Source: Tritrichomonas musculus (Eukaryota > Parabasalia > Tritrichomonadida > Tritrichomonadidae). Taken from it: a stretch of 64,000 nucleotides of DNA. The DNA lies in NCBI GenBank assembly GCA_039105265.1, contig JAPFFF010000044.1, positions 1-64,000 of the forward strand, read 5' to 3'. Positions 24,401 to 57,704 of the stretch are shown here, piece by piece. The notes below the pieces were generated by a model. It had not been told where the DNA came from, searched no databases, and saw only the letters and a program-made list of their open reading frames with translations. Position 1 is the first letter of the stretch; the number at the start of each line of letters is the position of its first letter. Position numbers and translations under genes: made by a program.

Positions 24401-26722
24401 AGAAATCTTTGAGTTTAAGTTGTTGATTTCTGTTGTCATTGATGAAACCTTTGTTGTAAGTGTTGAGTTTTGGTTAGTTAATTTATCATGATCATCTTTG
24501 GCTCTTCTTTGTGTTTCAGACAATTCTCTCTTGACGCTTTCGAGTTGGCTTGTGAGTGAATCGTGGTCTTGTTTAGCCTTTCTTTCTGTTTCAGAAACAA
24601 CAGAGTTGAGTCTGCTTACTTCTGAAGTTAACTTGTCATGATCAGCTTGTGCGTTTCTCTTTGTTTCAGACAAAGTGTTATTAAGACGTTCAATTTCAGA
24701 TGTCAATGTTGTGATCTTTGATTTCAAGTTTGTGTTTTCACTTGTTAAGCTTGTGATCTTTGTGTTCAAGTTGTTGACTTGTGCTGATAAATGATCATGA
24801 TCAAGTTGAGCTTTACGTTGTGCTTCAGCCAAATCTCTCTTTAATTTTTCGATTTCTCCACTTAAGCTGTCGTGGTCGAGTTGTGCTTTACGTTGTGTAT
24901 CGGAAATGACTCCATTAAGACGAGAGACTTCAGCAGTAAGTTTGCTGTGGTCTTCTTGTGCTTTATGTTCTGTTTCAGAAAGCGTCTTGTTCAAACGTTC
25001 AATTTCGCCATTTAATTTAGTGATTTGCGCTGTTAAGTGAGTGTGGTCTTCTTGAGCGTTCTTTTGTGTTTCAGCCAATTCTTTGGTCAAACGAGCAATT
25101 TCACCAGATAAGTGATCGTGATCAATCTTAGCCTGTCGTTGTGTTTCAGCCAGTTGTGATTTGGCGTGTTCGTTTTCAGAAGTCAATGTGGTGATCTTTG
25201 TGTTCAATGTTGTGATTGTTTGTGACAACTTGTCATGATCTTCTTGTGCTTTATGCTGTGTTTCAGAAAGTTGTGTCTTGAGACGATCGATTTCTGAAGT
25301 CAATTTGTTGTGATCTTCAAGCGAATCTTTCTTCAATTTCTCAATTTCAGCTGTTAATTTGTTGTGATCTTCAGTTGCCTTTGTTTGTGTTGTTGTGAGT
25401 TCTTTCTTAAGACGTTCAATTTCAGCTGTCAACTTGTCTTGTTCTTGCTTGGCTGTTAACTTGAATTGTGAGAATTCTTGTTCAACTTTGGTTCTCTTTG
25501 TCTCTGATTCAGAGAGAGCTTTCTTGAGACGTTCAATTTCAGCTCTCAAGTTTTCATTGTCTTTTTGTGATTCAGCCAATTTTGTTGTGAGTGCTTTGTT
25601 GTTTGCTTCTGATTCGGCCAAAAGTTTCTTGAGACGTTCAATTTCAGCTAACAAACCGTCACGTTCTGATTTGGCTTTAGCTTCAGCTTCAGCGCGTTCT
25701 TTTGCAAGTTTGTCGGCTTCAGCACGAGCAGCAGCTTCAGCTTTTTCACGAGCTAATCTTTCAGCTTCTGCCTTTGCTTCAGCGTCAGCTTTTTCTTTGG
25801 CTAATCGGTCAGCTTCTGCTTTTTCACGTGCTAATTGTTCTTCCTCTTCTTTTTCATGTGCTAAACGATCGGCTTCTGCCTTTTCACGTGCTAAACGTTC
25901 TGCATCAGCGCGTGCTTCGGCATCGGCCTTTTCTTTAGCTAATCTTTCAGCTTCGGCTCTTTCTCTTGCCAATCTTTCTGCTTCTTCTCTTGCATGTGCA
26001 TCCTTGTCTTTGAGGTTTTCGAGGACAACTTTGGCAGCAGCGAGCTGTGTAAGGAGAGTTTTCTCATCAACTTGGTCGTTGCTGGCTGAGATATCTTCTG
26101 GTAATACGTAAACAGGGATTCCGAGTTCTTCCATGACTTTGCAGACGAGTTGGGAGTTCTTTTGAACATCGGCTGCGTTTAATGAATAGAAGTTGATCTT
26201 ATCTGGGACGTATGAATCGAGTAATGCGCACATTGCAATTGTATATGGAGTGAATTTGCTGACATTTGGATAATTTGATGTTCTTCCAATTGCCCATTCA
26301 AGAAGGGCATTTTTGGCTGGTGTTTTAGTTGCGTTGTTGTCTTTGCTTTGTGTAACAGATTTGGTAATTGAATAATGTAAAATAAGTGACCAAACATAAC
26401 CAAGAATAAGTTTTTCGTTGTTATCATTGACATCTTTACCTGAGATACCGACTAATTTGACACCATCTTTGGTGAACATGTCAATTGATAAATCACAGTT
26501 CATAACTTGATCAACATTTCGTTTTGGTGTTTTAGCCCATTTCATTGGTGCGTCTTTTTTAGTAAGGATTTGTGCGAGTTCAACAAGAGGAACTCCGTTT
26601 GAGAGATCTTTTGTAATTTCTCCAATCTCTGAACAATTGTTGGTTTTGAGTTGTCCGTTGACCCATCGTGTGAAAACTTTGATTTGGAGTGGGATCCAGT
26701 CATTTGCATTTGATGTAGACAT
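21419..26722 (-). CDS. double calponin-homology protein with very long coiled-coil rod
   Basis: The protein has 1767 residues. The N-terminus carries two calponin-homology domains (about 8-115, starting WIPLQIKVFTRWVNGQL, and about 134-235, NALLEWAIGRTSNYPNV), the actin-binding pair of alpha-actinin, fimbrin and related proteins. From about 240 to 1750 the chain is one near-continuous coiled coil. It starts with A/E/R-rich repeats (AEAERLAREKAEA), then dozens of units of the form SETQRKAKEDHDKLTAEI with an N/L-rich partner (NLNSKISTMTSEI). A single rod of this size would be about 220 nm long. It probably crosslinks or scaffolds actin. A TCATTTTT initiator lies 27 nt before the ATG. The next gene, on the same strand, is another giant coiled-coil protein. 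Confidence 0.85.
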   Translation of the reverse strand: MSTSNANDWIPLQIKVFTRWVNGQLKTNNCSEIGEITKDLSNGVPLVELAQILTKKDAPMKWAKTPKRNVDQVMNCDLSIDMFTKDGVKLVGISGKDVNDNNEKLILGYVWSLILHYSITKSVTQSKDNNATKTPAKNALLEWAIGRTSNYPNVSKFTPYTIAMCALLDSYVPDKINFYSLNAADVQKNSQLVCKVMEELGIPVYVLPEDISASNDQVDEKTLLTQLAAAKVVLENLKDKDAHAREEAERLARERAEAERLAKEKADAEARADAERLAREKAEADRLAHEKEEEEQLAREKAEADRLAKEKADAEAKAEAERLAREKAEAAARAEADKLAKERAEAEAKAKSERDGLLAEIERLKKLLAESEANNKALTTKLAESQKDNENLRAEIERLKKALSESETKRTKVEQEFSQFKLTAKQEQDKLTAEIERLKKELTTTQTKATEDHNKLTAEIEKLKKDSLEDHNKLTSEIDRLKTQLSETQHKAQEDHDKLSQTITTLNTKITTLTSENEHAKSQLAETQRQAKIDHDHLSGEIARLTKELAETQKNAQEDHTHLTAQITKLNGEIERLNKTLSETEHKAQEDHSKLTAEVSRLNGVISDTQRKAQLDHDSLSGEIEKLKRDLAEAQRKAQLDHDHLSAQVNNLNTKITSLTSENTNLKSKITTLTSEIERLNNTLSETKRNAQADHDKLTSEVSRLNSVVSETERKAKQDHDSLTSQLESVKRELSETQRRAKDDHDKLTNQNSTLTTKVSSMTTEINNLNSKISQLTSELNRLNSTIPENERKARQDHDSLVAENKRLTTEVANLNQKISTMTTEINTLKSTLSETQRKAQQEHDSLTNTINSLNSKISTMTSEITRLNSVITETQRKAKEDHDKLTAENKKLSTEITNLNSKISTMTSEISRLNNVVSETERKAKQDHDNLTNQISSLNSKIASQTSEINNLNSKITTMTTEIKNLNNTISENQRKAQQERDCLSNEDRKLANEVSSLNTKITNLTNENKRLNTVITDTQNKAKQDHDNLTSQISTLNSKISTQTTEINNLNNKILSDASEVKRLNNVISDTQRKAQLDHDSLTRENNNLTTKVTNMTTEIKNLNNNLSETTRKAREDHDKQANEIRNLTSTISDTQRKAQQDHDNLTRENKNLNNKITTMTTENKRLNTVINESSNKNQTESSNMKNEIRNLNNSIQDSQRKAKQDHDNLTRENQNLTTKINNLTTENSNLKKELSDTQRKAKEDHDKLSAENQKLNSEITNLKSQITSLNSEIERLNRQIADAKRDAQQDHDKLTAEIKRLNDSLAEANRKAKEDHDRLAAENQKLSTEVANLKSQIATLNSEISNLKSKIQSMQSEIDRLNKQLADAQRAAQQEHDKLTAEIKKLNGEIDNLKRELADTQAKAKQDHDNLTSEVTRLNTEISNLKSKISLMQSEIDNLKKQLADAQAKARQDHDNLTNEINKLRTDNSNLNSKISSLTHEIENLKRQLAEAQRKAKEDHDNLTREIEKIKKDAKDDHDKLTHEIEQLKGEISRLNKVLSDTQREAKQDHDKLSGEIDRLKKELSDTQRKAKEDHDNLSREIQNLKNEIQHLNQTLSDTQRKAKEDHDNLTREIERLNKVLTETQRAAKDDHDRLSQEIDRLKKLLLDSENHVRELTQTLSDTQHKAKEDHDALTKEIESMKKMIESLQKELADTKQKAKDDHDNLVAEVERLKTELSKLNIKLLETIQNAEIDHNNLCQDIEKYRKALVDIGYIDDDTLKQKL

Positions 26723-27357: not shown

Positions 27358-30300
27358 TTAATTCAAGACAGCTTTTTCATTTCTCTTAGAATTTCCTTTT
27401 TCATCTTGTTTAGATGAATTCTCCTTTAGTTTTTTGACTTCGTATTTCATGCATTTCATATCTTCTTTCAATGATTCGTTATCTTTCTTTAATCTATCGA
27501 GTCTTTTAGCAGCATCGTCCAACTTCTTTTGTGCCTCGTCAGCCTTGATTTCAGCGTCTTTAGCATCTTCAGAAGCCTTTGTTGAATTAGATTCAACTTT
27601 GTCAATTCTCTCGACAAGATCGTCTGGAATTTCAGGTGCTGCTCTTTCTTGTGCAACAACAGGAGTATCCTTTAATTTCTTGACTTCGTATTTAATGCAT
27701 TTCATATCTTCATTCATTGTATCATGATCTTTCTTAAGTCTGTCGACTTTGAAGTTAGCTTCTTGAGCTTTGTTCTGAGCATCTTCAATGTCTTTAGTAG
27801 CCTTATTTGCTTGTTGAATAGCTTTGTCGGATTTGTCATTAGCTTCTTTAATTTGTTGAACAAATTCATCTGGAATTACAACAGGTTCAGCAGCACGTTC
27901 TTTGGCTGGCTCTTGTTGAGGAGTATCCTTTAGTTTCTTCACTTCGAATTTCATGCATTTAATATCGTCATTCATCTTCTTATTTTCAGCCTTTAATTTA
28001 TCATTATCGGCTTGAATTTGTTCAAGTTTGTTGCTCAGATCAGTGGCCTTTGAATCTGCATCTTTGGCAACTTTTGATGCATGATGTGATTGTTTGGAAG
28101 CTTTATCTACACGTTCAACAAGATCATCAGGAATTGCTGGTGTTACTGGTGCTGCACGTTCTTGTGCTGGTTCATTTTCAGGAGCATCTTTAAGCTTCTT
28201 AATTTCATATTTCATGCATTTCATATCTCTGTCAATTGCATTAATTTTCTCATTGATTTCGCCAGCTTTTTGGTCAAGTTGTCTGCAATGCTTTGAAGCA
28301 TGATGTGAACGTTTAGAAGCTTTGTTGATACGTGTAAGAAGTTCATCTGGAATTGTTGCTGGTGCTGGTGCTGCTTGCTCTTTAACTGGTTCTGGTTGTG
28401 GAGCATCTTTAAGTTTCTTAACTTCATATTTCATGCATTTCATGTCTTCTTTCAATGAATCATTTTCTTTCTTAAGCTTGTTGATTGTCTTTGTAGCATC
28501 ATCTAATTTCTTCTGTGTTTCGCCTGCTTTGTTGCCTGCATCTTCTGCGTCTTTGGATGCTTTATCAACACGTTCGACAAGATCTTGTGGAATTTCAGGA
28601 GCAGCTCTTTCTTGGACTGGTTCTGGCTGTGGTGTATCCTTGAGCTTCTTAACTTCGTATTTCATGCATTTCATGTCAGCCTTTAACGATTCATTTTCAT
28701 TCTTAAGAGTATCAATTCTCTTGTTGGCTTCATCAAGTTTCTTCTGTGTTTCATCAACGCCTTCATTGGCCTTTGTTGATTGTTGTTGTGCATTATCAAC
28801 ACGCTCAAGAAGATCATCTGGAATTGCAGGTGCTGCTCTTTCTTGGACTGGTTCTGGGGCTGGTGCCTCCTTGAGTTTCTTGACTTCATATTTCATGCAT
28901 TTCATGTCTTTGTGAATGTTTTCATTGTCTGCTCTGACTGCATCAATGTCTTTGACTGCCTTGTCAGACTTGGCATTTGCATCCTTGATTTGTTGGATGA
29001 ACTCGTCTGGAATGACAACTGGTTGTGGTGCTTGTTCAACTGGCTCTGGTGCTGGTGTATCCTTGAGCTTCTTAACTTCGTATTTCATGCATTTCATGTC
29101 AGCCTTTAATGATTCATTTTCGTTCTTAAGATCATCAATTCTCTTGTTGGCTGCTTCGAGTTTCTTCTGTGCATCATCAACGCCTTCATTGGCCTTTGTT
29201 GATTGTTGTTGTGCATTATCAACACGCTCAACAAGATCATCTGGAATTGCAGGTGCGGCGCGTTCTTGGACTGGTTCGGGAGCTGGTGCCTCCTTGAGTT
29301 TCTTGACTTCATATTTCATGCATTTCATGTCTGATCTTAGTGTTGCATTCTCCTTCTTAAGATCTTCAACTGCTTCGTTGGCTTTGGTTGATGTTTGTTG
29401 TGCATTGTCAACACGTTCGACAATGTCTTCTGGAAGTTCTGGAACTGCACGTTCTTCAACTGGTGCTGCCATCAGTGCTGGTGCGTTCTTAAGCCTCTTA
29501 ACTTCGTATTTAAGGCACTTGATGTCTGTCTTCATGTCTTCGTTTTCATTCTTGAGACCTTCAATTTGCTTATTAGCATCGTTGGCAGCATCATTGGCCT
29601 TTGTTGATGTTTGTTGTGCATTGTCAACACGCTCAACAAGATCGTCTGGGATCTCTGGAACAGCGCGTTCTTGGACTGGTTCTGGAGCTGGTGCTTCCTT
29701 GAGTTTCTTGACTTCGTATTTCATGCATTTCATGTCCGATCTTAATGTTGCATTCTCCTTCTTAAGATCTTCAATTTGCTGGTGAGCATCGTCGGCTTTC
29801 TGTCCTGCTGCAACAGCTGCATCATTAGCCTTGGTTGATGTTTGCTGTGCATTGTCAACACGCTCAACAAGATCATCTGGGATCTCTGGAATAGCGCGTT
29901 CTTCGACTGGAACTGGTGCCGGAGCTGGAGCATCCTTGAGTTTCTTGACTTCGTATTTCATGCAGCTTATATCGGATCTTAATTTTTCATTCTCCTTCTT
30001 GAGGTTTTCGATTTGCTGGTGAGCATCGTCAGCTTTCAGTCCAGCAGCGACGGCCACATCGTTAGCCTTTGTTGATTGTTGTTGTGCATTATCAACACGC
30101 TCAACAAGATCATCTGGAATGGCAGGTGCGGCTCGTTCTTGGACTGGTTCGGGAGCTGGTGCTTCCTTGAGTTTCTTGACTTCATATTTCATGCATTTCA
30201 TGTCTGATCTTAGTGTTGCATTCTCCTTCTTAAGATCTTCAACTGCTTCGTTGGCTTTGGTTGATGTTTGTTGTGCATTGTCAACACGTTCGACAATGTC

Positions 30301-32454
30301 TTCTGGAAGTTCTGGAACTGCACGTTCTTCAACTGGTGCTGCCATCAGTGCTGGTGCGTTCTTAAGCCTCTTAACTTCGTATTTAAGGCACTTGATGTCT
30401 GTCTTCATGTCTTCGTTTTCGTCCATTAGAGTATCAATTCTCTTGTTAGCTTCTTCGAGTTTCTTCTGTGCATCGTCAACGCCTTCATTGGCCCTTGCTG
30501 ATGTTTGCTGAGCATTGTCAACACGCTCAACGAGATCGTCTGGAATTGCAGGTGCTGCTCTCTCTTGGACTGGATCTGGCACTGGCGCCTCCTTAAGTTT
30601 CTTGACTTCGTATTTCACGCATCCCATGTCTGATCTTAATTTTTCGTTCTCTTTCTTAAGATCTTCAATTTGTTGGTGAGCATCGTCAGCTTTCAGTCCA
30701 GCAGCGACGGCCACATCGTTAGCCTTAGCTGAAGCTTGTTGAGCGTTATCAACACGTTCTTCAAGGTCATCAGGAATGGCAGGTGCAGCACGTTCTTGGA
30801 CTGGTTCAGGTTGAGGAGCGTCCTTAAGTTTCTTAACTTCATATTTAAGGCATTTCACATCGGACTTTAACTTTGAATTATCATTCTGAATGGCAACGAA
30901 TTGTTCATTAACTTTGCTAGTTGTTTCAGTGGACTGTTGTCTAAGTCCATCAATGTCTTGGCTGGCTTTATTGGCTTGTTCAACGGCTTTGTCTGACTTG
31001 TCATTGGCATCTTTGATTTGCTGGATGAATTCGTCAGGAATGACAATCGGTGCTGGCTCCGCTTGCTCAACTGGTGCTGCCTCTTGCACTGGTGCATCTT
31101 TAAGTTTCTTGACTTCGTATTTGAGGCATCTCATATCAGACTTTAATTGCTCATTTTCGGTCTTAAGAGCAACAATCTGTTGTTGGGCATTTGTAACGGC
31201 CTCGTTTGCCTTGGTTGATGTTTGTTGAGCATCATCAACTCTTTGAACAAGATCATCTGGAATAGATGGTGCTGAACGTTCTTCAACAACTGGTGTTGGT
31301 TCTGGTTGTGGGGCATCCTTTAGTTTCTTGACTTCGTATTTGAGGCATTTCATGTCATCAGTCATAGATTTGTGACCAGTTATGATTTCATTAACTTTGT
31401 TGGTTGTTTCTACATTTTGTTGCTTGAGACCATCAATATCTTGGCTTGCTTTGTCTGCTTTCTCGCATGCTTGGGCTGATTTGTCATTAGCATCTTTGAT
31501 CTGTTGGATGAATTCGTCTGGAATGACAACTGGGACTGGAGCTGCTTGTTCAACTGGGGATGATTCTGGTACTGGTGCATCTTTAAGTTTCTTGACTTCA
31601 TACTTAAGACATTTGACATCTGACTTTAATTCTTCGTTTTCGGATTTAAGTGCTGCAATTTGTTGTTGAGCATCAGTAGCTGTATCATTGGCCTTTGTTG
31701 ATGTTTCTTGTGCATTGTCAACTCTTTGGACAAGATCATCAGGAATTACTGGAACAGCACGTTCTTGAACAACTGGAGCAGGAGCTGGAACTGGAGTTTC
31801 CTTGAGTTTTTTGACTTCGAATTTGAGGCATTTGATAGCATTGTCCATTGAATCTATATCTTTTTGAAGTTTTTCAATATCTTCTGGATGAACTGAATTC
31901 TCTACAGGAGCAGCAGTTGGTATTGGAACAGCTTCTGGAGATGGAGTTTCCTTTAATTTTTTGACTTCAAATTTGAGGCATCTGATAGCATTGTCCATGG
32001 AGTCAATCTGTTTTTGGAGTTTTAATGTATCTTGCTCATTTTGAGTATTTTCAACTGGAATATCTCTTGATTGAACTTGGATGTTGTTATTGTTAGATTT
32101 TTTAAGTAATCTGACTTCGTATTTAAGGCATCTAATTTCTTTTTGGGTTTTTATGTTTGAATATGTTTGTTCTTTAAGTTCTTGTATTTCTTTTTTGATG
32201 TCATTTATATCTGAGTTTGTTATAAATTCATTTTGCAGTTTTAATTGCGCTTCTATTTTATCTAATCTTTCATGAATTTCATCAATCGATGCTGGACTCA
32301 TAACCTTTTGGAATGAAGCCATTTTTTTGTCAAGAGAATCTAAATGCTCATAAATTTTCATGATTTCATTATGTGTGTAATTGTTAAGATCGGTAATTCT
32401 AACTTCTTCATCACTTTCAGTGCTATCTATCGAATTAGATCTAGAATTTGTCAT
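27358..32454 (-). CDS. giant repeat coiled-coil protein with CMKYEVKKLK motif, 22 copies
   Basis: The protein has 1698 residues. The N-terminal 120 residues are helical and acidic. I count 22 occurrences of a motif like DMKCMKYEVKKLK, each about 60-85 residues apart. Each is followed by a Pro/Glu/Ala linker (DAPAPEPVQERAAP), then IPDDLVERVDNAQQTSTKAN and a helical spacer leading back to the motif. The pattern is alternating coiled-coil segments with Pro-rich hinges. The invariant Cys in each motif could crosslink or bind metal. No known family is recognised. The C-terminus is short and basic. A TCATTT initiator lies 19 nt before the ATG. Two blocks are nearly identical, 873 bp apart, so the array is still recombining. 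It is probably cytoskeletal or surface-scaffold, like its neighbour. Confidence 0.8.
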   Translation of the reverse strand: MTNSRSNSIDSTESDEEVRITDLNNYTHNEIMKIYEHLDSLDKKMASFQKVMSPASIDEIHERLDKIEAQLKLQNEFITNSDINDIKKEIQELKEQTYSNIKTQKEIRCLKYEVRLLKKSNNNNIQVQSRDIPVENTQNEQDTLKLQKQIDSMDNAIRCLKFEVKKLKETPSPEAVPIPTAAPVENSVHPEDIEKLQKDIDSMDNAIKCLKFEVKKLKETPVPAPAPVVQERAVPVIPDDLVQRVDNAQETSTKANDTATDAQQQIAALKSENEELKSDVKCLKYEVKKLKDAPVPESSPVEQAAPVPVVIPDEFIQQIKDANDKSAQACEKADKASQDIDGLKQQNVETTNKVNEIITGHKSMTDDMKCLKYEVKKLKDAPQPEPTPVVEERSAPSIPDDLVQRVDDAQQTSTKANEAVTNAQQQIVALKTENEQLKSDMRCLKYEVKKLKDAPVQEAAPVEQAEPAPIVIPDEFIQQIKDANDKSDKAVEQANKASQDIDGLRQQSTETTSKVNEQFVAIQNDNSKLKSDVKCLKYEVKKLKDAPQPEPVQERAAPAIPDDLEERVDNAQQASAKANDVAVAAGLKADDAHQQIEDLKKENEKLRSDMGCVKYEVKKLKEAPVPDPVQERAAPAIPDDLVERVDNAQQTSARANEGVDDAQKKLEEANKRIDTLMDENEDMKTDIKCLKYEVKRLKNAPALMAAPVEERAVPELPEDIVERVDNAQQTSTKANEAVEDLKKENATLRSDMKCMKYEVKKLKEAPAPEPVQERAAPAIPDDLVERVDNAQQQSTKANDVAVAAGLKADDAHQQIENLKKENEKLRSDISCMKYEVKKLKDAPAPAPVPVEERAIPEIPDDLVERVDNAQQTSTKANDAAVAAGQKADDAHQQIEDLKKENATLRSDMKCMKYEVKKLKEAPAPEPVQERAVPEIPDDLVERVDNAQQTSTKANDAANDANKQIEGLKNENEDMKTDIKCLKYEVKRLKNAPALMAAPVEERAVPELPEDIVERVDNAQQTSTKANEAVEDLKKENATLRSDMKCMKYEVKKLKEAPAPEPVQERAAPAIPDDLVERVDNAQQQSTKANEGVDDAQKKLEAANKRIDDLKNENESLKADMKCMKYEVKKLKDTPAPEPVEQAPQPVVIPDEFIQQIKDANAKSDKAVKDIDAVRADNENIHKDMKCMKYEVKKLKEAPAPEPVQERAAPAIPDDLLERVDNAQQQSTKANEGVDETQKKLDEANKRIDTLKNENESLKADMKCMKYEVKKLKDTPQPEPVQERAAPEIPQDLVERVDKASKDAEDAGNKAGETQKKLDDATKTINKLKKENDSLKEDMKCMKYEVKKLKDAPQPEPVKEQAAPAPATIPDELLTRINKASKRSHHASKHCRQLDQKAGEINEKINAIDRDMKCMKYEIKKLKDAPENEPAQERAAPVTPAIPDDLVERVDKASKQSHHASKVAKDADSKATDLSNKLEQIQADNDKLKAENKKMNDDIKCMKFEVKKLKDTPQQEPAKERAAEPVVIPDEFVQQIKEANDKSDKAIQQANKATKDIEDAQNKAQEANFKVDRLKKDHDTMNEDMKCIKYEVKKLKDTPVVAQERAAPEIPDDLVERIDKVESNSTKASEDAKDAEIKADEAQKKLDDAAKRLDRLKKDNESLKEDMKCMKYEVKKLKENSSKQDEKGNSKRNEKAVLN

Positions 32455-45272: not shown

Positions 45273-45351
45273 ACGAATTTTCCTCCTCACTTTTTGTGAG
45301 CTATGCTCTCAAAAAGTTATTACGGAAAATTAAGAAATAAAAAACTTTATT

Positions 45352-45402
45352 ATATAGTCCTAGCACGAGAAAATTCTCATTTTTACACGAGAAAAAAAAG
45401 TT
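45352..45402 (+). repeat. left terminal inverted repeat of the palindromic element
   Basis: It reads ATATAGTCCTAGCACGAG, AAAATTCTCATTTTTACACG, then an AGA-rich A run. The same string in reverse complement ends the element at 57,501, with T in place of C in the TTCTC block. Confidence 0.8.
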
Positions 45403-45492
45403 TTTTTGATAATTATGATCAACTTTTTCAGAAGGGAAAAAATTTTGTTTGGAAAAAAATTTGATTTTTCAATAAAAATTTTTTGGAAAATC

Positions 45493-48400
45493 TTCACTTT
45501 TTCCCACTTTTTCAAAAAAAAAGTTGATTTTTTTCTGAAAACATTTTTTATTATGCATTTTTTTCAAAAAAAAAATAAAGTTATGCATTTTTTTTAATTT
45601 TTTAAAAAAATAGTTGAAAAATTTGGTTAGGCAATTTAGGTATTCATGGAGGAAAAATCCCCAAAAAATATATATTGATCACTGTATGATGAAAGTTATA
45701 ATGGCATAAATTTTATTCGAAAATTTCATTTCTACTCAAGATATCTAATTTGATTTCGATAAAGAGTTTCAATAAAAAGCTACAAAAGTATGCAAACAAT
45801 GCACAATCGTATTTCAATTCATTATTTATACTCTTATTAATCAATTCTTAAATTTGATAATTATCAATTTATTTCGAATATTCGATATTTTTATTACTCT
45901 GTTTAAGTAATCCACTTTTCCGTTATATATAAGATTTTTCATCATATTTTACATACAATAACTCCAGTAAATGCTATGAATTGCATTTTAAAATTTTTAT
46001 ATTTATCAATGATATCCAAAAATCCTCATAGATAGTATACATAAATTTGTATTAAATATATATTAAATTAAATGTATATTTATGTTATACTGCTTATACT
46101 TCTTTATTTTCTTTTTTCATCGAGGAAAAGCCGATAATTATTCATAAATATAAACGTATTATCAAACGCGCATTATGTAAAAAATCAAATATTTCTAAAA
46201 TATGATGAGGAAAATAATATTAATTTTATGAAAAATGTAATTATTAAGTTAAACTTTTCATTTTACGCAGAAAATAAACAGATTTAAATAAAAAAGTATA
46301 AATTAAAAATGATTTTTTAAAAAATGCTTTTTATTCATTATTTGCTCATTATGAATAAATTAATTATGATGATGACAATTGCAAAAAAGATGATAACTGA
46401 AGAGACGAAGAGGAAAAAAATGATGATGAAGATAGCGAAGAAAAAGAAGAAAAATAAGAAGAAGACGATGATGATTGCATTGAAGAAGAAGAAGACGATG
46501 ATGATTGCATTGAAGAAGAAGAAGACGATGATGATTGCATTGAAGAAGAAGAAGACGATGATGATTGCATTGAAGAAGAAGAAGACGATGATGATTGCAT
46601 TGAAGAAGAAGAATACGATGATGAAGATGAAGATGGAGAAGAAGAAGACGATGCTGATGATGAAGAATAAGACGATGCTGATGATGAAGATGGAGAAGAA
46701 GAAGACGATGAAGAAGATGATGATGATGAAGATGGAGAAGAAGACGATGATGATGAAGAAGAAGATGATGATGAAGATGGAGAAGAAGACGATGATGATG
46801 AAGATGGAGAAGATGACGATGAAGAAGACGATGATGATGAAGAAGAAGATGATGATGAAGATGGAGAAGAAGACGATGAAGATGGAGAAGAAGACGATGC
46901 TGATGATGAAGATGGAGATGGAGAAGAAGACGATGATGAAGAAGATGATGATGAAGATGGAGAAGAAAACAATGATGATGAAGATGATGATGATGATGAT
47001 GATGAAGATGATGATGATGAAGATGGAGAAGAAGACGATGATGATGAAGATAATGATGATGATGAAGATGGAGAAGATGACGATGAAGAAGACGATGATG
47101 ATGATGAAGATGATGAAGAAGACGATGATGATGAAGATGGAGAAGATGACGATGAAGAAGACGATGATGACGAAGATGGAGAAGAAGACGATGAAGAAGA
47201 CGATGATGATGAAGAAGAAGATGATGATGAAGATGGAGAAGATGACGATGATGATGAAGAAGAAGATGATGAAGAAGATGGAGAAGATGACGATGAAGAA
47301 GACGATGATGATGATGAAGATGTAGAAGAAGACGATGATGATGAAGATGATGATGATGAAGAAGATGGAGAAGATGACGATGAAGAAGACGATGATGATG
47401 ATGAAGATGGAGAAGAAGACGATGATGATGAAGAAGAAGATGATGAAGAAGATGGAGAAGATGACGATGAAGAAGACGATGATGATGATGAAGATGGAGA
47501 AGAAGATGATGATGATGAAGATGATGATGATGATGATGATGATGATGAAGATGGAGAAGAAGACGATGATGATGAAGATGATGATGATGATGAAGATGGA
47601 GAAGAAGACGATGATGAAGAAGAAGAAGATGATGATGAAGATGGAGAAGAAGACGATGATGATTAAGATGGAGAAGATGACGATGAAGAAGACGATGATG
47701 AAGATGAAGAAGAAGACGATGAAGAAGACGATGATGAAGATGAAGAAGAAGACGATGAAGAAGACGATGATGATGATGAAGAAGAAGACGATGAAGAAGA
47801 CGATGATGAAGATGAAGAAGAAGACGATGAAGAAGACGATGATGATGATGAAGACGATGATGATGATGAAGATGGAGAAGAAGACGATGAAGAAGACGAT
47901 GATGATGATGAAGATGATGAAGATGATGAAGATGATGAAGAAGACGATGATGATGATGATGAAGACGATGATGAAGATGAAGATGATGAAGATGATGAAG
48001 AAGACGATGATGAAGATGAATAAGAAGACGAAGAAGAAGACGATTCTGATGATGAAGATGGAGAAGAAAAAGAAGAAAAAAAAAGACGATGATGATGATG
48101 AAAACGATGAAGATGATGAAGAAGAAGACGATGATGATGATGAAGATGGAGAAGAAGACGATGATGATGAAGAAGAAGATGATGATGAAGATGGAGAAGA
48201 AGACGATGATGATGAAGAAGATGATGATGATGAAGATGGAGAAGAAGACGATGATGATGAAGATGATGATGATGATGAAGATGGAGAAGAAGACGATGAT
48301 GATGAAGATGGAGAAGATGACGATGAAGAAGACGATGATGATGGAGAAGATGACGATGAAGAAGACGATGATGATGAAGAAGAAGATGATGATGAAGATG

Positions 48401-49143
48401 GAGAAGAAGACGATGATGATGAAGAAGATGATGATGATGAAGATGGAGAAGAAGACGATGATGATGAAGAAGAAGAAGATGATGAAGATGATGATGATGA
48501 TGGAGAAGATGACGATGAAGAAGACGATGATGATGAAGATGAAGATGATGATGATGATGATGATGATGAAGATGGAGAAGAAGACGATGATGATGAAGAT
48601 GATGATGATGATGAAGATGGAGAAGAAGACGATGATGATGAAGAAGAAGAAGATGATGAAGATGATGATGATGATGGAGAAGATGACGATGAAGAAGACG
48701 ATGATGATGAAGATGATGATGATGATGATGATGATGATGAAGATGGAGAAGAAGACGATGATGATGAAGATGATGATGATGATGAAGATGGAGAAGAAGA
48801 GGATGATGATGATGAAGAAGATGATGATGAAGAAGAAGATGATGAAGAAGAAGATGATGATGAAGAAGATGATGATGAAGAAGAAGATGATGATGAAGAT
48901 GGAGAAGAAGACGATGATGATGAAGATGGAGAAGATGATGATGATGATGATGAAGAAGAAGATGATGATGAAGATGGAGAAGAAGACGATGATGATGATG
49001 AAGATGGAGAAGATGACGATGAAGAAGACGATGATGATGATGAAGATGGAGAAGAAGACGATGATGATGAAGAAGATGATGATGATGAAGATGATGATGA
49101 TGATGATGAAGATGGAAAAGAAGACGATGATGATGAAGATGAA

Positions 49144-49174
<31 letters not shown>

Positions 49175-50590
49175 AAGATGACGATGAAGAAGACGATGAT
49201 GATGAAGATGATGATGATGATGATGATGATGATGAAGATGGAGAAGAAGACGATGATGATGAAGATGATGATGATGATGAAGATGGAGAAAAAGACGATG
49301 ATGATGAAGAAGAAGATGATGATGAAGATGGAGAAGATGACGATGATGATGAAGATGGAGAAGATGACGATGAAGAAGACGATGATGATGAAGATGGAGA
49401 AGAAGACGATGATGATGAAGATGGAGAAGATGACGATGAAGAAGACGATGATGATGATGATGAAGATGGAGAAGAAGACGATGAAGAAGACGATGATGAT
49501 GAAGAAGAAGAAGACGATGATGATGAAGATGGAGAAAAAGACGATGATGATGAAGATGATGATGATGAAGATGGAGAAGATGAAGATGATGAAGAAGACG
49601 ATGATGAAGATGAAGATGATGAAGATGATGAAGAAGACGATGATGAAGATGAAGAAGAAGACGAAGAAGAAGACGATTCTGATGATGAAGATGGAGAAGA
49701 AAAAGAAGAAAAAAAAAGACGATGATGATGATGAAAACGATGAAGATGATGAAGAAGAAGACGATGATGATGATGAAGATGGAGAAGAAGACGATGATGA
49801 TGATATGGAGAAGAAGAAGAATAAGACAATGATGATGGTGGAGAAGGAAAAGAAGAAGAAGACGATAATGGTGATGATGATGAAGATGAAGAAGAAGAAG
49901 ATGATGGAGGAGAAAAAGAAGACGATAATAATGATGATGAAGAAAAATATGATGAAGATGATGGAGAAGAAGAAGAAGATGATAGTAGAGAAGAAGAAGA
50001 AGACGATAATGATTGCATTGAAGAAAATGATGATGATGATGAAGAGGAAGAAGAAGAAAAAAAAAAAAGGATCAGAGGAAGATGATTGAAATGAAAAAGA
50101 ATACGATGGCAAAAGAGGAGAAAGAAAGATAATGATGATGACTATACTGATAAAGAAGAAAATAAAGAAATTTGGCAATGATAATAACTATTTAAGTATT
50201 TTTATGGCACTTTGATTGTTATTATTAGCGCTTGAGATTGTTAACAGAGTTATTCAAGATATTAATCTGCAATTATGTATTTGCTTCAAAATATATATAG
50301 CATTTTTATGTGATAAATTGATTTAAATTATCTATTTTAAAATATTTAAGATGGTATTGTTATCAATATATAGAGCATTTTGATATAAAAATGGCAATAT
50401 CAAACTGGCTGAAATGTGAGATGAAAATATGATCGAAAATGTAAGGGCGAATGTTTGATTATCATATTTTAAATAAATATAATAATATATCATTATGCTA
50501 ATGTATATATACTTTACAATTATCCTATAAATGAATGAGATATCGATTCAAAACTGAATATAGATGCACAAAAATATTTTTATAAAAGCA
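45493..50590 (+). repeat. left arm of giant inverted repeat
   Basis: The 5.1-kb arm is the reverse complement of 52,046-55,232. Single-copy parts on both sides of the triplet array match almost perfectly (one T/C difference noticed near 46,096/54,630). The inner end matches TATAAAAGCA against TGCTTTTATA. The arm is about 1.9 kb longer than its partner because its triplet array is longer. Confidence 0.9.
46428..50090 (+). repeat. GAT/GAA/GAC triplet array, left arm (decayed acidic-repeat gene)
   Basis: About 3.6 kb of imperfect GAT, GAA and GAC triplets. In one frame this encodes Asp/Glu runs with a recurring DDDDEDGEEDD unit. The outer edge has five 30-bp units encoding DDDDCIEEEE and the inner edge has EEEDEEEDDSDDEDGEEKEEK blocks. 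Stops and frame changes interrupt that frame (for example TAA near 46,456, near 46,667 and near 47,665), so no continuous gene remains. Open frames in the other registers encode only Met/Lys or Ser/Ile/His strings and are by-products. The origin is probably a short acidic protein gene expanded by slippage. Confidence 0.85.
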
Positions 50591-51448
50591 GTCTAAGCTT
50601 TAGCACTTATATAAGACTATTTGATTTCATGTATCAATATATCATATTAAAATCTTAATTATTTTTTGATATAAAAATAAAACCTGCAAGATCCACTGAT
50701 ATTAATACCAAACTTCAGTATTTATATAGATTAAAGGAGAGATATATAATTTCTACAAGCAAATGAAGTCCTCAAAGATAGGACCCTAAATAAGATTCTC
50801 TTTGGCTTGTGTGGAAGATATATGTTTATCTCTGTGAGTCAGTATATTTACGAGATGCTATGATTTATAAACGATCATATTGAAGAAAACTCAAATGCAA
50901 ACGACGAAGAGATAGCAAAAATATTGAATACTTATCTCACTGTTGATGAAACAATGGGCTTTAGATATACTTAAAGGCAGAATTGAGACATTTGAGGCTG
51001 AGAATACGAGTTTAAAAACTACGATAGCCGTTTTTGAAGCCAGAATTGCTGCTCTCGAAGAGAAAAATGAACTTGTCAACCCAAATTTAATAGAATGTTG
51101 ATTTATCACAGGTTCGGTCAATGTTGGAAAGTTATAGTGTACATAATAAATTAATAAATATTATGCTAATTTATTCTATCCATATACTGAAACATATCAA
51201 AACAAAACTTCTGAAAAGAGAGTACATGTTTATGTTGAATGTGATGATGCTAAAAATCCTAAAATTATGTATACTATAACTTTCCTCAACAATTTATCTT
51301 AATAATGAGGCCTTTCTATTCACTAGTTCAAATACACAAAATAATGAAAACATAACTCATCTTACCATAGCAAGTGCCATGCTTGATAAAGGTATTGAAA
51401 TGGTTGATAATGAAGATAATGAGATTATTTATGATGACTAGAAAAGTT

Positions 51449-51485
<37 letters not shown>

Positions 51486-52045
51486 TTGAAAACACAGTGA
51501 TATCGTTGGTGCGGTTAGGTCTAGGTGGCAGTTTAGGAACAACAGCCTAACGTATACTACTTATTATACTTTTAGCAACAATGAAATTATAATAAATATT
51601 AAAAAAGATAAATATTTTTGTATTCTTCCAGGATAAATACTAACAAAATAGAGGTCTAATTGTGATTGTCTCGAATATTCATTAAATCTTTATATCATTA
51701 GTGATTGCATGAATAAAACTAAATACAAAGTATTTGATCAATAAAATAATTTATAATATAAGAAAGGAGATTTTTTAGGCTATTATAGGACATTAATTGA
51801 TGGTAACTCCCAATATAACAATTAAATATGAATATTTACTAATAATTAGTAAATTATCTATAGTAATTTAGTATTCTACCTATTATTTAACCTGACATAT
51901 TGTCAATGAAGTCAACTATGCTAAATATGTAGATATTGTGTGAATTTGGCACTGTTGCTATCAAATTCATTTGTATTAAAACATACCTGATATCATCTTA
52001 TCTGTTACTCATTTTTTTTCTCAATGGAAATGCAAAAGCCTAGAT
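50591..52045 (+). pseudogene. spacer of the palindrome with broken coding traces
   Basis: The 1455-bp centre contains separate readable pieces on the plus strand in different frames. They are DEEIAKILNTYLTVDETMG (near 50,910), LKGRIETFEAENTSLK plus VFEARIAALEEKNEL (near 50,970-51,080, a coiled-coil repeat), YQNKTSEKRVHVYVECDDAK (near 51,195) and NITHLTIASAMLDKGIEMV (near 51,345). They look like one former gene broken by frameshifts and stops. A poly-T run (about 51,451-51,484) and a GC-rich stretch (about 51,485-51,560) follow. No family is recognised. Confidence 0.5.
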
Positions 52046-55000
52046 TGCTTTTATAAAAATATTTTTGTGCATCTATATTCAGTTTTGAATCGATATCTCA
52101 TTCATTTATAGGATAATTGTAAAGTATATATACATTAGCATAATGATATATTATTATATTTATTTAAAATATGATAATCAAACATTCGCCCTTACATTTT
52201 CGATCATATTTTCATCTCACATTTCAGCCAGTTTGATATTGCCATTTTTATATCAAAATGCTCTATATATTGATAACAATACCATCTTAAATATTTTAAA
52301 ATAGATAATTTAAATCAATTTATCACATAAAAATGCTATATATATTTTGAAGCAAATACATAATTGCAGATTAATATCTTGAATAACTCTGTTAACAATC
52401 TCAAGCGCTAATAATAACAATCAAAGTGCCATAAAAATACTTAAATAGTTATTATCATTGCCAAATTTCTTTATTTTCTTCTTTATCAGTATAGTCATCA
52501 TCATTATCTTTCTTTCTCCTCTTTTGCCATCGTATTCTTTTTCATTTCAATCATCTTCCTCTGATCCTTTTTTTTTTTTTCTTCTTCTTCCTCTTCATCA
52601 TCATCATCATTTTCTTCAATGCAATCATTATCGTCTTCTTCTTCTTCTCTACTATCATCTTCTTCTTCTTCTCCATCATCTTCATCATATTTTTCTTCAT
52701 CATCATTATTATCGTCTTCTTTTTCTCCTCCATCATCTTCTTCTTCTTCATCTTCATCATCATCACCATTATCGTCTTCTTCTTCTTTTCCTTCTCCACC
52801 ATCATCATTGTCTTATTCTTCTTCTTCTCCATATCATCATCATCGTCTTCTTCTCCATCTTCATCATCATCATCGTCTTCTTCTTCATCATCTTCATCGT
52901 TTTCATCATCATCATCGTCTTTTTTTTTTCTTCTTTTTCTTCTCCATCTTCATCATCAGAATCGTCTTCTTCTTCGTCTTCTTCTTCATCTTCATCATCG
53001 TCTTCTTCATCATCTTCATCATCTTCATCTTCATCATCGTCTTCTTCATCGTCATCTTCTCCATCTTCATCATCATCATCTTCATCATCATCGTCTTTTT
53101 CTCCATCTTCATCATCATCGTCTTCTTCTTCTTCATCATCATCGTCTTCTTCATCGTCTTCTTCTCCATCTTCATCATCATCATCATCATCTTCATCATC
53201 ATCGTCTTCTTCATCGTCATCTTCTCCATCTTCATCATCATCATCATCATCATCATCATCTTTATCATCATCATCATCATCTTCATCATCATCGTCTTCT
53301 TCTCCATCTTCATCTTCATCATCATCGTCTTCTTCATCGTCTTCTTCTCCATCTTCATCATCATCATCGTCTTCTTCTTCATCATCTTCATCGTTTTCAT
53401 CATCATCATCGTCTTTTTTTTTCTTCTTTTTCTTCTCCATCTTCATCATCAGCATCGTCTTCTTCATCGTCTTCTTCTTCTTCATCATCATAGTCTTCTT
53501 CATCGTCATCTTCTCCATCTTCATCATCATCATCATCATCATCATCTTTATCATCATCATCATCATCTTCATCATCATCGTCTTCTTCTCCATCTTCATC
53601 TTCATCATCATCGTCTTCTTCATCGTCTTCTTCTCCATCTTCATCATCATCATCGTCTTCTTCTTCATCATCTTCATCGTTTTCATCATCATCATCGTCT
53701 TTTTTTTTCTTCTTTTTCTTCTCCATCTTCATCATCAGCATCGTCTTCTTCATCGTCTTCTTCTTCTTCATCATCATAGTCTTCTTCATCGTCATCTTCT
53801 CCATCTCCATCTTCATCATCAGCATCGTCTTCTTCTTCTCCATCTTCATCATCAGCATCGTCTTCTTCTCCATCTTCATGATCTTCATCGTCTTCTTCTC
53901 CATCTCCATCTTCATCATCTTCATCGTCTTCTTCTCTATCTTCATCATCTTCATCGTCTTCTTCTTCTCCATCTTCATCATCAGCATCGTCTTATTCTTC
54001 ATCATCAGCATCGTCTTCTTCTTCTCCATCTTCTTCTTCTTCTCCATCTTCATCATCAGCATCGTCTTATTCTTCATCATCAGCATCGTCTTCTTCTTCT
54101 CCATCTTCTTCTTCTTCTCCATCTTCATCTTCATCATCGTCTTCTTCTTCTTCAATGCAATCATCATCGTCTTCTTCTTCTTCAATGCAATCATCATCGT
54201 CTTCTTCTTCTTCAATGCAATCATCATCGTCTTCTTCTTCTTCAATGCAATCATCATCGTCTTCTTCTTATTTTTCTTCTTTTTCTTCGCTATCTTCATC
54301 ATCATTTTTTTCCTCTTCGTCTCTTCAGTTATCATCTTTTTTGCAATTGTCATCATCATAATTAATTTATTCATAATGAGCAAATAATGAATAAAAAGCA
54401 TTTTTTAAAAAATCATTTTTAATTTATACTTTTTTATTTAAATCTGTTTATTTTCTGCGTAAAATGAAAAGTTTAACTTAATAATTACATTTTTCATAAA
54501 ATTAATATTATTTTCCTCATCATATTTTAGAAATATTTGATTTTTTACATAATGCGCGTTTGATAATACGTTTATATTTATGAATAATTATCGGCTTTTC
54601 CTCGATGAAAAAAGAAAATAAAGAAGTGTAAGCAGTATAACATAAATATACATTTAATTTAATATATATTTAATACAAATTTATGTATACTATCTATGAG
54701 GATTTTTGGATATCATTGATAAATATAAAAATTTTAAAATGCAATTCATAGCATTTACTGGAGTTATTGTATGTAAAATATGATGAAAAATCTTATATAT
54801 AACGGAAAAGTGGATTACTTAAACAGAGTAATAAAAATATCGAATATTCGAAATAAATTGATAATTATCAAATTTAAGAATTGATTAATAAGAGTATAAA
54901 TAATGAATTGAAATACGATTGTGCATTGTTTGCATACTTTTGTAGCTTTTTATTGAAACTCTTTATCGAAATCAAATTAGATATCTTGAGTAGAAATGAA

Positions 55001-55232
55001 ATTTTCGAATAAAATTTATGCCATTATAACTTTCATCATACAGTGATCAATATATATTTTTTGGGGATTTTTCCTCCATGAATACCTAAATTGCCTAACC
55101 AAATTTTTCAACTATTTTTTTAAAAAATTAAAAAAAATGCATAACTTTATTTTTTTTTTGAAAAAAATGCATAATAAAAAATGTTTTCAGAAAAAAATCA
55201 ACTTTTTTTTTGAAAAAGTGGGAAAAAGTGAA
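52046..55232 (-). repeat. right arm of giant inverted repeat
   Basis: The 3.2-kb inverted copy of the left arm. The outer boundary is at a GGAAAAAGTGAA block that matches TTCACTTTTTCC at 45,493. Confidence 0.9.
52560..54330 (-). repeat. GAT/GAA/GAC triplet array, right arm
   Basis: The inverted, shorter counterpart (about 1.8 kb). It keeps four copies of the 30-bp DDDDCIEEEE unit at its outer edge. Within it a segment of about 290 bp (about 53,130-53,420 and 53,490-53,720) is nearly duplicated, including the EEKEEKKK block. Long open frames are by-products of the biased composition. Confidence 0.85.
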
Positions 55233-57452
55233 AAGCACCCAAATTTTTTACCCGAAGATAAAATTTCAAAATTTTAATAAAAAAATTTTTATTCCGAAAA
55301 CGGTTTTTAATGAAGAAAAAATAATGCACAAATAACGAAAAAATTGTATGTCAAAAAAACTAGAAATTTCATCAAAAAAATCAAAACAAAAAAACTTATT
55401 CTAAAAATATAATGACTAAAGAAAAATGATCTGAGCAAATTTTTTATAATTAAAATGATTTGTTAATCATACAAAATCTTTTTTTGGATTTAAAAAAAGG
55501 TATAACATTATGTTTCTGACTTTTAATAATAGAGATTGTGATATAAAATTGAAGAATTTTTTAATATAAATGATGATGGAGTATTTATTAATGTAATTGA
55601 TGATGGAGTATTTGTTAATGTAATTGATGATTAAATGTTTATTAATGTATTTGATAATTGAGTATTTATTAATGTATTTGATGATTAAGAATTTATTAAT
55701 ATAATTGATGATTGAGTTTTCATTAATGTATTTTATAATAAAACAGTTTTTGATATACTAGAAACTTGTTAAATTACTTTATATATAAATTATAATCCTG
55801 TTGAATTTAAGGAAAATGTTGATTTTATAGGATAATCTGACCGTTTATTTTTTAAAGAATTTTTTGATCATTTTGAACTCAGTGTAAAAAATATAAATAA
55901 ATTTAATACATAAAAATATTATAAATTCCATTATTAATATAATTATAAGAACAAAATCAACTTTTAACTAATTTTCAAGAGAATACTAAGATGATTATCG
56001 ATTTTATTAATTCTAATATTTTGTGTTAAGAACCAGACAATCTAATTGTAATATGAAAAAACAATGGTTTTTAGAGCTGATTTTCATATTAAAATCTTTA
56101 CAAATCAAATTCTTTACCTTTTTATATTTTGTGCGTTAAATTTTTTTTATATATATAAAGCACCAACAAGATCAATTCCAAATTCTAAATTATTTAATAC
56201 TCAAATTATTATAAACTAAATCAAATACAACCAGATTCTATATCATGTATGTAGCAGTAAGAGATAAGAATTTCAAGATAAGAGTTATTATCAGATTATT
56301 AAGAAGTTTCAAAAATCAAATAAAGCTCTTGCTAGCATTTCCTATCAATGCTTTTAAAGATGATAGAATATGATATAGACATTTTTTACAAATCAGTTTT
56401 GAATCAAAGTAATTCCATTCTTAGAAGTAATGCTTACAAATAATCGAAAATTCTGAAGTTTTAAAATAAATTTTCAATTGTTATCTGGTCTGAAATCTAT
56501 CAAAATATTATATCAAAAGCATCATTAAATTCATACAAAAGAAAAGCATTTGAAATAGATAATGCCAATGTATACATGTATATAAGCATTCTTTTAAAAA
56601 GAACGGGATTCCAATAATCAATCAAAACATTGCAATAAAAGAGCTCAAAATCATTGGCATTATCTATTTTTCAATGCATATATTTCACACCAAGTATTTA
56701 AATTTAATATTTGAAAAAAGAAATTTAGAAATGGTTTATTAAAAAATGAATATTCATAAATAAATCATCGAAATATTTTTGCATTCGTATTTGAAAAAAT
56801 TTGATTGAGTTTTTAATGAAAAAAAAGAGAAAATAAAGGCTTGAACCTATTTGGTAAAAAAAATCGCCCTTAAATCCATTTTATATCAAGAAACTAATTG
56901 TATTGGTTGGTTTTTAACACAAAATATTAAAATTAATAAAATCGATATTATCATATTTATTCTCTTGAAAATTAGTTTAAAAATTTATGGGTGTCATATT
57001 ATATATTCATTTCATAATATATATATATTACTTTTTTATGAAATCTACATATATATATGAATATATTTTATTAATTCTGAATATTTAAATTTAATGGAAA
57101 AACATTTATTACTCATGAGTAAAAGCCCATTTTCGCTTGTAAAATCAAGAATTTATTATAAATGAAATTTGATGTAAAAATGCTTTTTTTTTTGGCAAAA
57201 ATGATGAGATTAAAAAATCAAATACTTCCTGTTTTTGTTTTTTTGATTTTTATTTAAATATTTGTGCCTGAACTTTCATTTTTTTCTCTAAAACCGCTTT
57301 CGCCTCACACTTTAGTTAATTCGTAGCATCAAAAACCGTTTTCGTGAAAAATTTTTTTTCATAACATTTTGATTTTTTTTTCTGCGCGAAAAAATTTTTT
57401 CATGAATTTTTCTATATTTTTATTGAAAATTTGAATGGAAATAAAGAATTTT
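55233..57452. other. right-hand unique part of the palindromic element
   Basis: Apart from the 27-bp repeat this 2.2 kb is AT-rich and has no convincing gene. A 69-codon ORF near 56,851 is of AT-driven composition and is not supported. Confidence 0.5.
55571..55735 (+). repeat. 27-bp degenerate tandem repeat
   Basis: About six copies of a unit like ATGATGGAGTATTTATTAATGTAATTG follow one another with a 27-bp period. In one frame they encode VINVIDDGVF-like units interrupted by stops, so a repeat-containing ORF may have decayed here. Confidence 0.7.
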
Positions 57453-57501
57453 TATTTTTTTCTCGTGTAAAAATGAAAATTTTCTCGTGCTAGGACTATA
57501 T
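57453..57501 (-). repeat. right terminal inverted repeat of the palindromic element
   Basis: Read on the minus strand it begins ATATAGTCCTAGCACGAG, AAAATTTTCATTTTTACACG, matching the left end. Confidence 0.8.
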
Positions 57502-57704
57502 CTATATTTATTTATTAAAATTATTAAATATTTTTTTTATTGGTAGTTAATTAATATATTTCATAAAAATTATATTTAATTCGAATAATATTATTAATTT
57601 CATATAATATTGTTTAAATAATAAAAAAATAAACTTTTCATATATTATTGAATTATTGAGTAATTATTCAAAACAAAATTCAATGGTGATGTAATTATTT
57701 AATA

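What the first reader, a model, noticed from the sequence alone, without database searches (positions are those of the whole stretch)
45352..57501. Giant palindromic element with terminal inverted repeats and acidic triplet arrays
Matching 49-bp ends enclose a 12.1-kb unit with inverted arms of 5.1 and 3.2 kb, nearly identical outside the arrays. No transposase was found. Palindromes of this size are unstable, so persistence or recent formation is notable. It may represent an undescribed class of foldback or Maverick-like elements.
Basis: partly seen in the sequence, partly recalled or inferred. Interest (0 to 1): 0.75.

Follow-up and report, generated by a model that had tools for sequence, protein, structure and literature searches.

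The report
Giant foldback transposon with self-matching arms
In the mouse gut protist Tritrichomonas musculus, a family of unusually large palindromic jumping elements keeps its two mirror-image arms identical and sometimes flips the segment between them, which makes it a natural test bed for how cells tolerate very long palindromes.

Summary
The palindrome is real, but the "12.1-kb unit" is two nested elements. The 49-bp CTAGCACGAG ends belong to a 2.4-kb TA-ended repeat A, found uninterrupted elsewhere in the genome. Inserted in A, with a 9-bp target duplication, is the true palindrome B (45485-55240, 9,756 bp). The host is Tritrichomonas musculus.

B is a multi-copy family. 63 tip sites occur genome-wide (control 0); 37 lie in 18 convergent pairs, and 18 of 18 pairs join one L tip to one R tip. 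17 of 18 pairs have 8-10 bp target duplications. Outer arms are identical within a copy (mean 0.1 mismatch per 868 bp, ten copies) but not between copies (mean 13.7). The spacer lies in either orientation; the arm tree needs four changes, at least two well supported.

So B moves as a DNA transposon with distinct ends, while its arms recombine with each other. The arrays look non-coding. No transposase of its own was found; a MULE-type enzyme in trans is inferred. Closest known: Tm1 of root-knot nematodes (Mutator/Foldback). B is far larger, with more uniform arms. It is not Maverick-like. Raw reads were not examined.

The parts
45347..57506 (+).
45476..45484 (+). left copy of the 9-bp target duplication AAATTTTTT of B
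55241..55249 (+). right copy of the target duplication AAATTTTTT
45485..55240 (+). Element B, the giant palindromic foldback element (9,756 bp)
45485..45494 (+). L tip GGAAAATCTT
55231..55240 (-). R tip GGGTGCTTTT
45495..46360 (+). left outer arm; 1 mismatch in 866 to the right outer arm
46364..50061 (+). left GAN-triplet tandem array (3,698 bp)
50062..50608 (+). left inner arm; differs from the right one only in its last 18 columns, next to the spacer
50609..52027 (+). central spacer (1,419 bp), found in both orientations among copies
52028..52574 (-). right inner arm
52575..54364 (-). right GAN-triplet tandem array (about 1.8 kb)
54365..55230 (-). right outer arm

Best explanation
B is a non-autonomous foldback DNA transposon family of Tritrichomonas musculus. 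SHOWN: it sits at many sites as a unit with two different tips (one L, one R) and an 8-10 bp, mostly 9-bp, target duplication; its long arms are identical within a copy and differ between copies; its spacer occurs in both orientations. INFERRED: a transposase supplied in trans, most likely MULE-type, pairs one L end with one R end and moves the element. Between jumps the arms recombine with each other: crossovers inside the arms flip the spacer, and conversion without crossover spreads new mutations from one arm to the other, so the palindrome stays near-perfect without being rebuilt at each jump. The arrays are fast-evolving, probably non-coding tandem repeats that are homogenised less completely than the arms.
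For: 63 tip sites, control 0; 18 of 18 convergent pairs are L plus R. 17 of 18 pairs are flanked by 8-10 bp direct repeats (14 of 9 bp, 2 of 10, 1 of 8), against 3 of 306 mismatched flank pairings sharing 8 bp or more, two of which are the duplicate contigs C39/C197. The empty site is seen in other copies of A. Outer arms: 0 mismatches in 9 of 10 copies and 1 in the window copy, between-copy mean 13.7 of 868, 0 of 20,000 shuffles as low. Spacer direct in 10 copies and inverted in 5; four changes on the arm tree, at least two forced by well-supported branches. The differing bases at the spacer edge travel with the flipped spacer. Sister copies C28 and C43b, at different sites, keep the same unequal left and right arrays. 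At least 142 MULE transposase matches exist in the genome.
Against: No transposase with B-like tips was found; the only listed MULE match inside a B copy (1 of 18 pairs, C42) lies in a repeat that also occurs outside B. C42 has no target duplication, and those of C10 and C32 are A-rich runs that also match each other's flanks. Arrays are not fully homogenised: C6a and C43a, and C28 and C43b, share more of the same-side array with the sister copy than between their own two arms. Orientation is clustered on the tree more than shuffled labels (11 and 6 of 500 as low), so flips are not frequent. Arm identity and spacer orientation rest on an assembly whose raw reads I did not see; the paper reports a mean PacBio read of 8.9 kb and racon polishing, and polishing could hide a few arm differences.
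Confidence: 0.75

Rival explanations
1. The palindrome is rebuilt at every transposition by hairpin or fold-back replication: one arm is copied to make the other, so each new copy starts as a fresh perfect palindrome.
For: Near-zero within-copy arm divergence. In C10 an R tip stretch of 78 bp is followed by a complete L-tipped arm, as if a whole arm had been copied in.
Against: C28 and C43b, at different target sites, have identical outer arms to each other yet share the same unequal arrays (1,468 bp left; 956 and 866 bp right), so a jump did not equalise the arms. 18 of 18 pairs keep L and R distinct. The spacer is found flipped.
Confidence: 0.12
2. Arms, flips or both are assembly artefacts (reads folded at palindromes, amplification chimeras, or polishing that copied one arm to the other).
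For: Long palindromes are hard to assemble; the genome paper lists 'Whole genome amplification' as a keyword; no reads were inspected here.
Against: Different tips at the two ends in 18 of 18 pairs, target duplications in 17 of 18, unequal arrays, and an empty site in other copies of A are not what a folded read gives. The arms of most copies (roughly 2.3-5.1 kb) are shorter than the mean PacBio read of 8.9 kb.
Confidence: 0.06
3. B is a Maverick/Polinton or a remnant of one.
For: Large size; copies C6a, C43a and C62 share an insert whose protease part is Ulp1-like. That Mavericks carry a related protease, and are abundant in trichomonads, is recalled apart from the T. vaginalis abundance seen.
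Against: 8-10 bp duplications (Mavericks 6 bp, recalled). No ORF of 80 aa or more outside the arrays in C28, C43b, C5, C39 and C44. The Ulp1-bearing stretch is a separate high-copy repeat (404 first-look candidates, 40 scored).
Confidence: 0.02
4. B is moved by an enzyme that is not MULE-type; its likeness to Mutator/Foldback elements is convergence.
For: No MULE gene with B-like tips was found. Passages on T. vaginalis MULEs say they lack typical long TIRs (PMC2725143). Galileo, a P-superfamily element, also has long, internally repetitive TIRs (PMC3573991), so this shape arises more than once.
Against: 9-bp duplications, composite ends and asymmetric tips together match Tm1, whose transposase is MULE-type (PMC3169594). 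MULE genes abound in this genome.
Confidence: 0.25

Closest known systems
Tm1, Mutator/Foldback family of root-knot nematodes (PMC3169594; abstract and passages seen)
   Same: Asymmetric short motifs at the two outer ends outside the inverted repeat; tandem repeats of variable number in the TIRs; mostly 9-bp target duplications (8-10 bp in 45 of 53); non-autonomous members
   Different: Tm1 elements seen in the passages are 0.9-2.6 kb, against 1.4-32 kb tip to tip here; Tm1 TIRs average 93.15% identity within an element, against 0-1 mismatch in 868 here; Tm1 has a known transposase, B does not; spacer flips were not among the passages I read; different host lineage and sequence
Drosophila Foldback (FB) elements (recalled; mentioned in the papers)
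   Same: Long inverted arms made partly of tandem repeats around a central loop; 9-bp duplications (recalled)
   Different: Arms here reach 5.1 kb; no NOF-like gene was looked for
Galileo of Drosophila (PMC3573991; passages seen)
   Same: Foldback-like shape, TIR length variation by tandem repeats, recombination proposed between TIRs
   Different: P superfamily with 7-bp duplications and TIRs of 18-1,250 bp
TvMULEs of Trichomonas vaginalis (PMC2725143; passages seen)
   Same: Parabasalid host, duplications of similar length (listed ones 10-14 bp)
   Different: Typical long TIRs were not identified in TvMULEs; they carry the transposase, B does not
Palindromes kept identical by gene conversion, such as those of sex chromosomes (a willow example seen as listing and abstract start only) and chloroplast inverted repeats (recalled)
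   Same: Arms kept identical by recombination within the molecule; spacer inversion
   Different: Not mobile elements

Membership tests
Foldback-type DNA transposon (structural class) | long inverted arms containing tandem repeats around a central loop | tested here: met
Foldback-type DNA transposon (structural class) | dispersed copies with target site duplications | tested here: met
   17 of 18 pairs, 8-10 bp
Tm1-like Mutator/Foldback | asymmetric motifs at the two outer ends, outside the inverted repeat | tested here: met
   18 of 18 pairs L plus R
Tm1-like Mutator/Foldback | shared sequence or Phantom-type MULE transposase in an autonomous member | tested here: inconclusive
   no autonomous member found; large copies not read through
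MULE superfamily | 8-11 bp target duplication (range as given in PMC6446971) | tested here: met
MULE superfamily | MULE transposase encoded by, or shown to act on, the element | tested here: inconclusive
   1 of 18 pairs (C42) holds a listed MULE match, in a repeat that also occurs outside B
Maverick/Polinton | 6-bp duplication (recalled) | tested here: not met
   8-10 bp
Maverick/Polinton | integrase and protein-primed DNA polymerase genes | tested here: not met
   no ORF of 80 aa or more outside the arrays in the five full copies without extra inserts; large copies not read
Galileo (P superfamily) | 7-bp duplications and a P-type transposase | tested here: not met
   for the duplication length; P-type transposase not searched

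The most novel reading that the evidence does not exclude
A new group of giant foldback transposons whose kilobase-long arms are held identical by continuing arm-to-arm recombination that also flips the centre, while the need for one L and one R end preserves the asymmetric tips, moved by a transposase that is not a known MULE. The palindrome is then a maintained, dynamic state rather than a transient one.
Probability: 0.2. Interest if true: 0.7.

Novelty: new variant of a known kind. Interest (0 to 1): 0.52.

Why it matters
Near-perfect palindromes with arms of 2-5 kb are expected to be unstable in most cells (general knowledge), yet at least 17 paired insertions of this one family (18 pairs less one duplicate contig) are present in one genome, with identical arms wherever both were compared. 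Private mutations found in both arms, flipped spacers and unequal arrays are countable records of arm-to-arm conversion and crossover in a protist. It also shows Mutator/Foldback-like architecture in a parabasalid, at a scale well above the animal examples whose passages I read.

Tried and rejected
Single 12.1-kb element: rejected by the empty site. Maverick: rejected by duplication length and the lack of genes in simple copies. Arrays as an acidic protein gene: not supported; the frame slips in 17 of 18 arrays, and the frame with fewest stops and the longest ORFs differ between copies; one array (C43a left) does keep a single phase over 1,753 bp. C42's 886-aa MULE ORF as B's own transposase: not accepted, since DNA beside it recurs at about ten other contigs. 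The HNH plus Ulp1 insert of C6a, C43a and C62 as B's own genes: not accepted, since its Ulp1 part is high-copy elsewhere (the HNH part was not searched). A 2.4-kb element at C44:767692 with one B-like tip as the autonomous partner: its longest ORF is 87 aa. Seven of the 26 tip sites outside pairs were sampled, 0.8 kb each, and only compared with B; they gave no transposase lead. C10 first looked like L plus L without a duplication; taken to its outer R tip it is R plus L with AAAAAAATA, an A-rich run. An apparent excess of differences in the inner arms proved to lie in the last 18-28 columns beside the spacer.

Dropped before counts: in the arm tests C6mini (short), C197 and C383 (same flanks as C39 and C43a, taken as duplicate contigs) and C10's extra tip; C197 is kept in the 18 pairs. 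Inner arms were compared in six copies and arrays in nine, the ones held in full; the arm test used the ten copies with both outer arms held. Mismatch counts leave gaps out: C39's two arms also differ by two single-run gaps in the outer arm. C42's orientation is from coordinates only and it is not on the tree; C4 and C40 are on the tree without an orientation.
Full report
Host. The window is the first 64 kb of a 1.28-Mb contig (C44) of a 193-Mb genome in 746 contigs. Among homologues of a window protein, those with an NCBI name are M9Y10_ proteins of Tritrichomonas musculus, and some lie on contigs of exactly the lengths of C44, C10, C39 and C8. The genome paper (PMC11978803; first of four parts read, passages) describes a mouse gut commensal, PacBio HiFi assembly with ONT scaffolding, mean PacBio read 8.9 kb, racon polishing. 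The words 'transpos', 'palindrom' and 'inverted' do not occur in its main text.

Two elements, not one. The 49-bp ends and the long palindrome are separate. Left 45352-45484 and right 55241-57501 are joined, with a 9-bp overlap, in other copies such as C2:5700907-5701038 and 5701030-5703290. This 2.4-kb repeat A ends in TATAGTCCTAGCACGAG on both sides in the window and in the five other copies whose two ends I compared, with unrelated flanks; that fits TA-targeting (Tc1/mariner-like) insertion, but no transposase was sought. Inside A the window holds element B, 45485-55240, flanked by the duplicated AAATTTTTT.

Anatomy of B. From the tip inwards: a 10-bp tip that differs between ends (L GGAAAATCTT, in C5 GGGAAATCTT; R GGGTGCTTTT, in C9 and C4 GGGTGTTTTT); an outer arm of about 870 bp; a GAN-triplet array of 0.9-3.7 kb; an inner arm of about 530-547 bp; a spacer of 1.4 kb; then the mirror image. 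Besides the window copy, eight long copies (6,605-10,869 bp) and one 1,369-bp mini copy were laid out in full. Some carry extra inserts: a Tc1/mariner-type gene in C9, a stretch with HNH and Ulp1-protease ORFs in C6a and C43a, unassigned ORFs in C10. C6a, C43a and C62 share the Ulp1 stretch and yet have different target duplications, so B appears to have moved while carrying cargo.

It moves as a unit. A 29-bp pattern covering both tips has 63 sites with up to 3 mismatches; the reversed pattern has none. 37 of the 63 lie in 18 convergent pairs, 1.4-32 kb long; all 18 pair one L with one R tip, taking C10's outermost tip. 26 sites are outside pairs. In 17 of 18 pairs the flanks repeat 8-10 bp (14 of 9 bp, 2 of 10, 1 of 8, allowing one base between tip and repeat in C2a, C2b, C6a and C39/C197); C42 has none. 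C197 repeats C39's flanks, so 17 pairs are independent. Of 306 mismatched flank pairings 276 share nothing of 5 bp or more and 3 share 8 or more: the C39/C197 cross-pairs and one A-rich pairing of C10 with C32.

The arms evolve together. In ten copies with both outer arms held, the two arms differ at 0 of 868 positions in nine and at 1 in the window copy (gaps left out); arms of different copies differ at a mean of 13.7 (180 comparisons, 0-22). No shuffle of 20,000 was as low. C39, for example, has ten or more differences from every other lineage, all present in both of its arms. The inner arms of six copies are identical within a copy except in the last 18-28 columns beside the spacer. The arrays are less uniform: 40-mer sharing between a copy's own arrays is 21-89%, against 0-24% between copies outside the two sister pairs; in the sister pairs C6a/C43a and C28/C43b the same-side arrays often share more with the sister than with the copy's other arm. 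Array lengths differ between arms in nine of nine copies. Where both were measured, sister pair aside, arms of different copies differ by 1.4-2.2% (outer) and spacers by 3.0-3.9%.

The spacer flips. Relative to the L tip the spacer is direct in C44, C28, C43b, C6a, C43a, C62, C12, C2a, C2b and C32 and inverted in C5, C9, C10, C39 and C42 (C62, C12, C2a, C2b, C32 and C42 from coordinates only). On the outer-arm tree, which leaves C42 out, this needs four changes, at least two forced by well-supported branches; shuffled labels need 6.3 on average, so orientation is partly inherited. C44 and C10 are supported neighbours with opposite orientation. The differing bases at the spacer edge travel with the spacer: the left edge of C9 equals the right edge of C44. 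That puts the crossover inside the arms.

How it most likely works. A transposase acting in trans joins one L with one R end and moves the element (inferred; MULE-type is the best guess from the 9-bp duplications, the likeness to Tm1 and the abundance of MULE genes). Arm-to-arm recombination then gives both the flips and the identity. Rebuilding by fold-back replication at each jump is less likely, because C28 and C43b, at different sites, inherited the same unequal arrays and the pairs keep L and R distinct. That L plus R is needed for movement is an inference from 18 of 18.

Coding. Five full copies (C28, C43b, C5, C39, C44) have no ORF of 80 aa or more outside the low-complexity arrays. GAN arrays are naturally poor in stops in two frames; the dominant phase switches in 17 of 18 arrays.

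What it resembles. Tm1 (PMC3169594; abstract and passages) has the same plan: asymmetric outer motifs, tandem repeats in the TIRs, 9-bp duplications, and a Phantom-type MULE transposase in its autonomous members. B differs in size, arm identity and lack of a found transposase, so I say B works like a Mutator/Foldback element and meets the structural foldback class, without filing it in the MULE superfamily. The MULE survey PMC6446971 (passages) gives TIRs of 14-500 bp for the elements it analysed; Galileo TIRs reach 1,250 bp (PMC3573991, passages). Searches for foldback with Trichomonas, Tritrichomonas with palindrom-, Tritrichomonas with transposable elements, T. musculus genome assembly and long inverted repeats with concerted evolution and flip-flop listed nothing that, by title or abstract start, describes such an element; most of those hits were seen as listings only, and the library lacks most subscription papers.

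Limits. Genome matches are lower bounds: only the best candidates are scored (MULE: 150 of 266 scored). No raw reads were seen.

Noticed in passing
L012, G000:C10:1037426-1037532: The R end of copy C10 has 78 bp of R-tipped arm followed at once by a complete L-tipped arm, as if a whole arm had been inserted or copied in behind the R tip.
   Followed up: partly
nine copies: The array on the L-tip side is longer than that on the R-tip side in 8 of 9 copies (C5 is the exception); copies are not independent and no cause is known.
   Followed up: no
copies C28, C5, C39, C44: Arms of different copies differ about half as much (1.4-2.2%, outer) as their spacers (3.0-3.9%), as if arm-to-arm conversion or constraint slows arm divergence.
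   Followed up: no
C62, C4, C34, C41, C42 (coordinates): In at least five ends the arm is interrupted by 1.5-7 kb of other DNA between about base 66 and 101 from the tip, an apparent insertion hot spot.
   Followed up: no
window 50873-51060 and 51475-51561: Two parts of the spacer match seven other genomic places at 86-88% and 77-78% in the same order: perhaps a captured piece of a host repeat or gene.
   Followed up: no
G000:C44:767692-770069 and C320: A 2.4-kb stretch with a B-like L tip at one end and a different tip (TTCAATTTTTCTCACTTTTTC) at the other; that second tip recurs at other sites.
   Followed up: partly
L070 (C42:259000-264500) and C58, C27, C29: A MULE gene family with Q-rich repeats sits beside long tandem repeats, at about a dozen places.
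   Followed up: no
window 4-921: An ORF with a weak integrase-core (rve) match, below Pfam's cut-off: probably another mobile element at the window edge.
   Followed up: no
window 21419-26722 and 27358-32454: Two very long minus-strand ORFs (1,767 and 1,698 aa) with internal tandem repeats, not identified.
   Followed up: no
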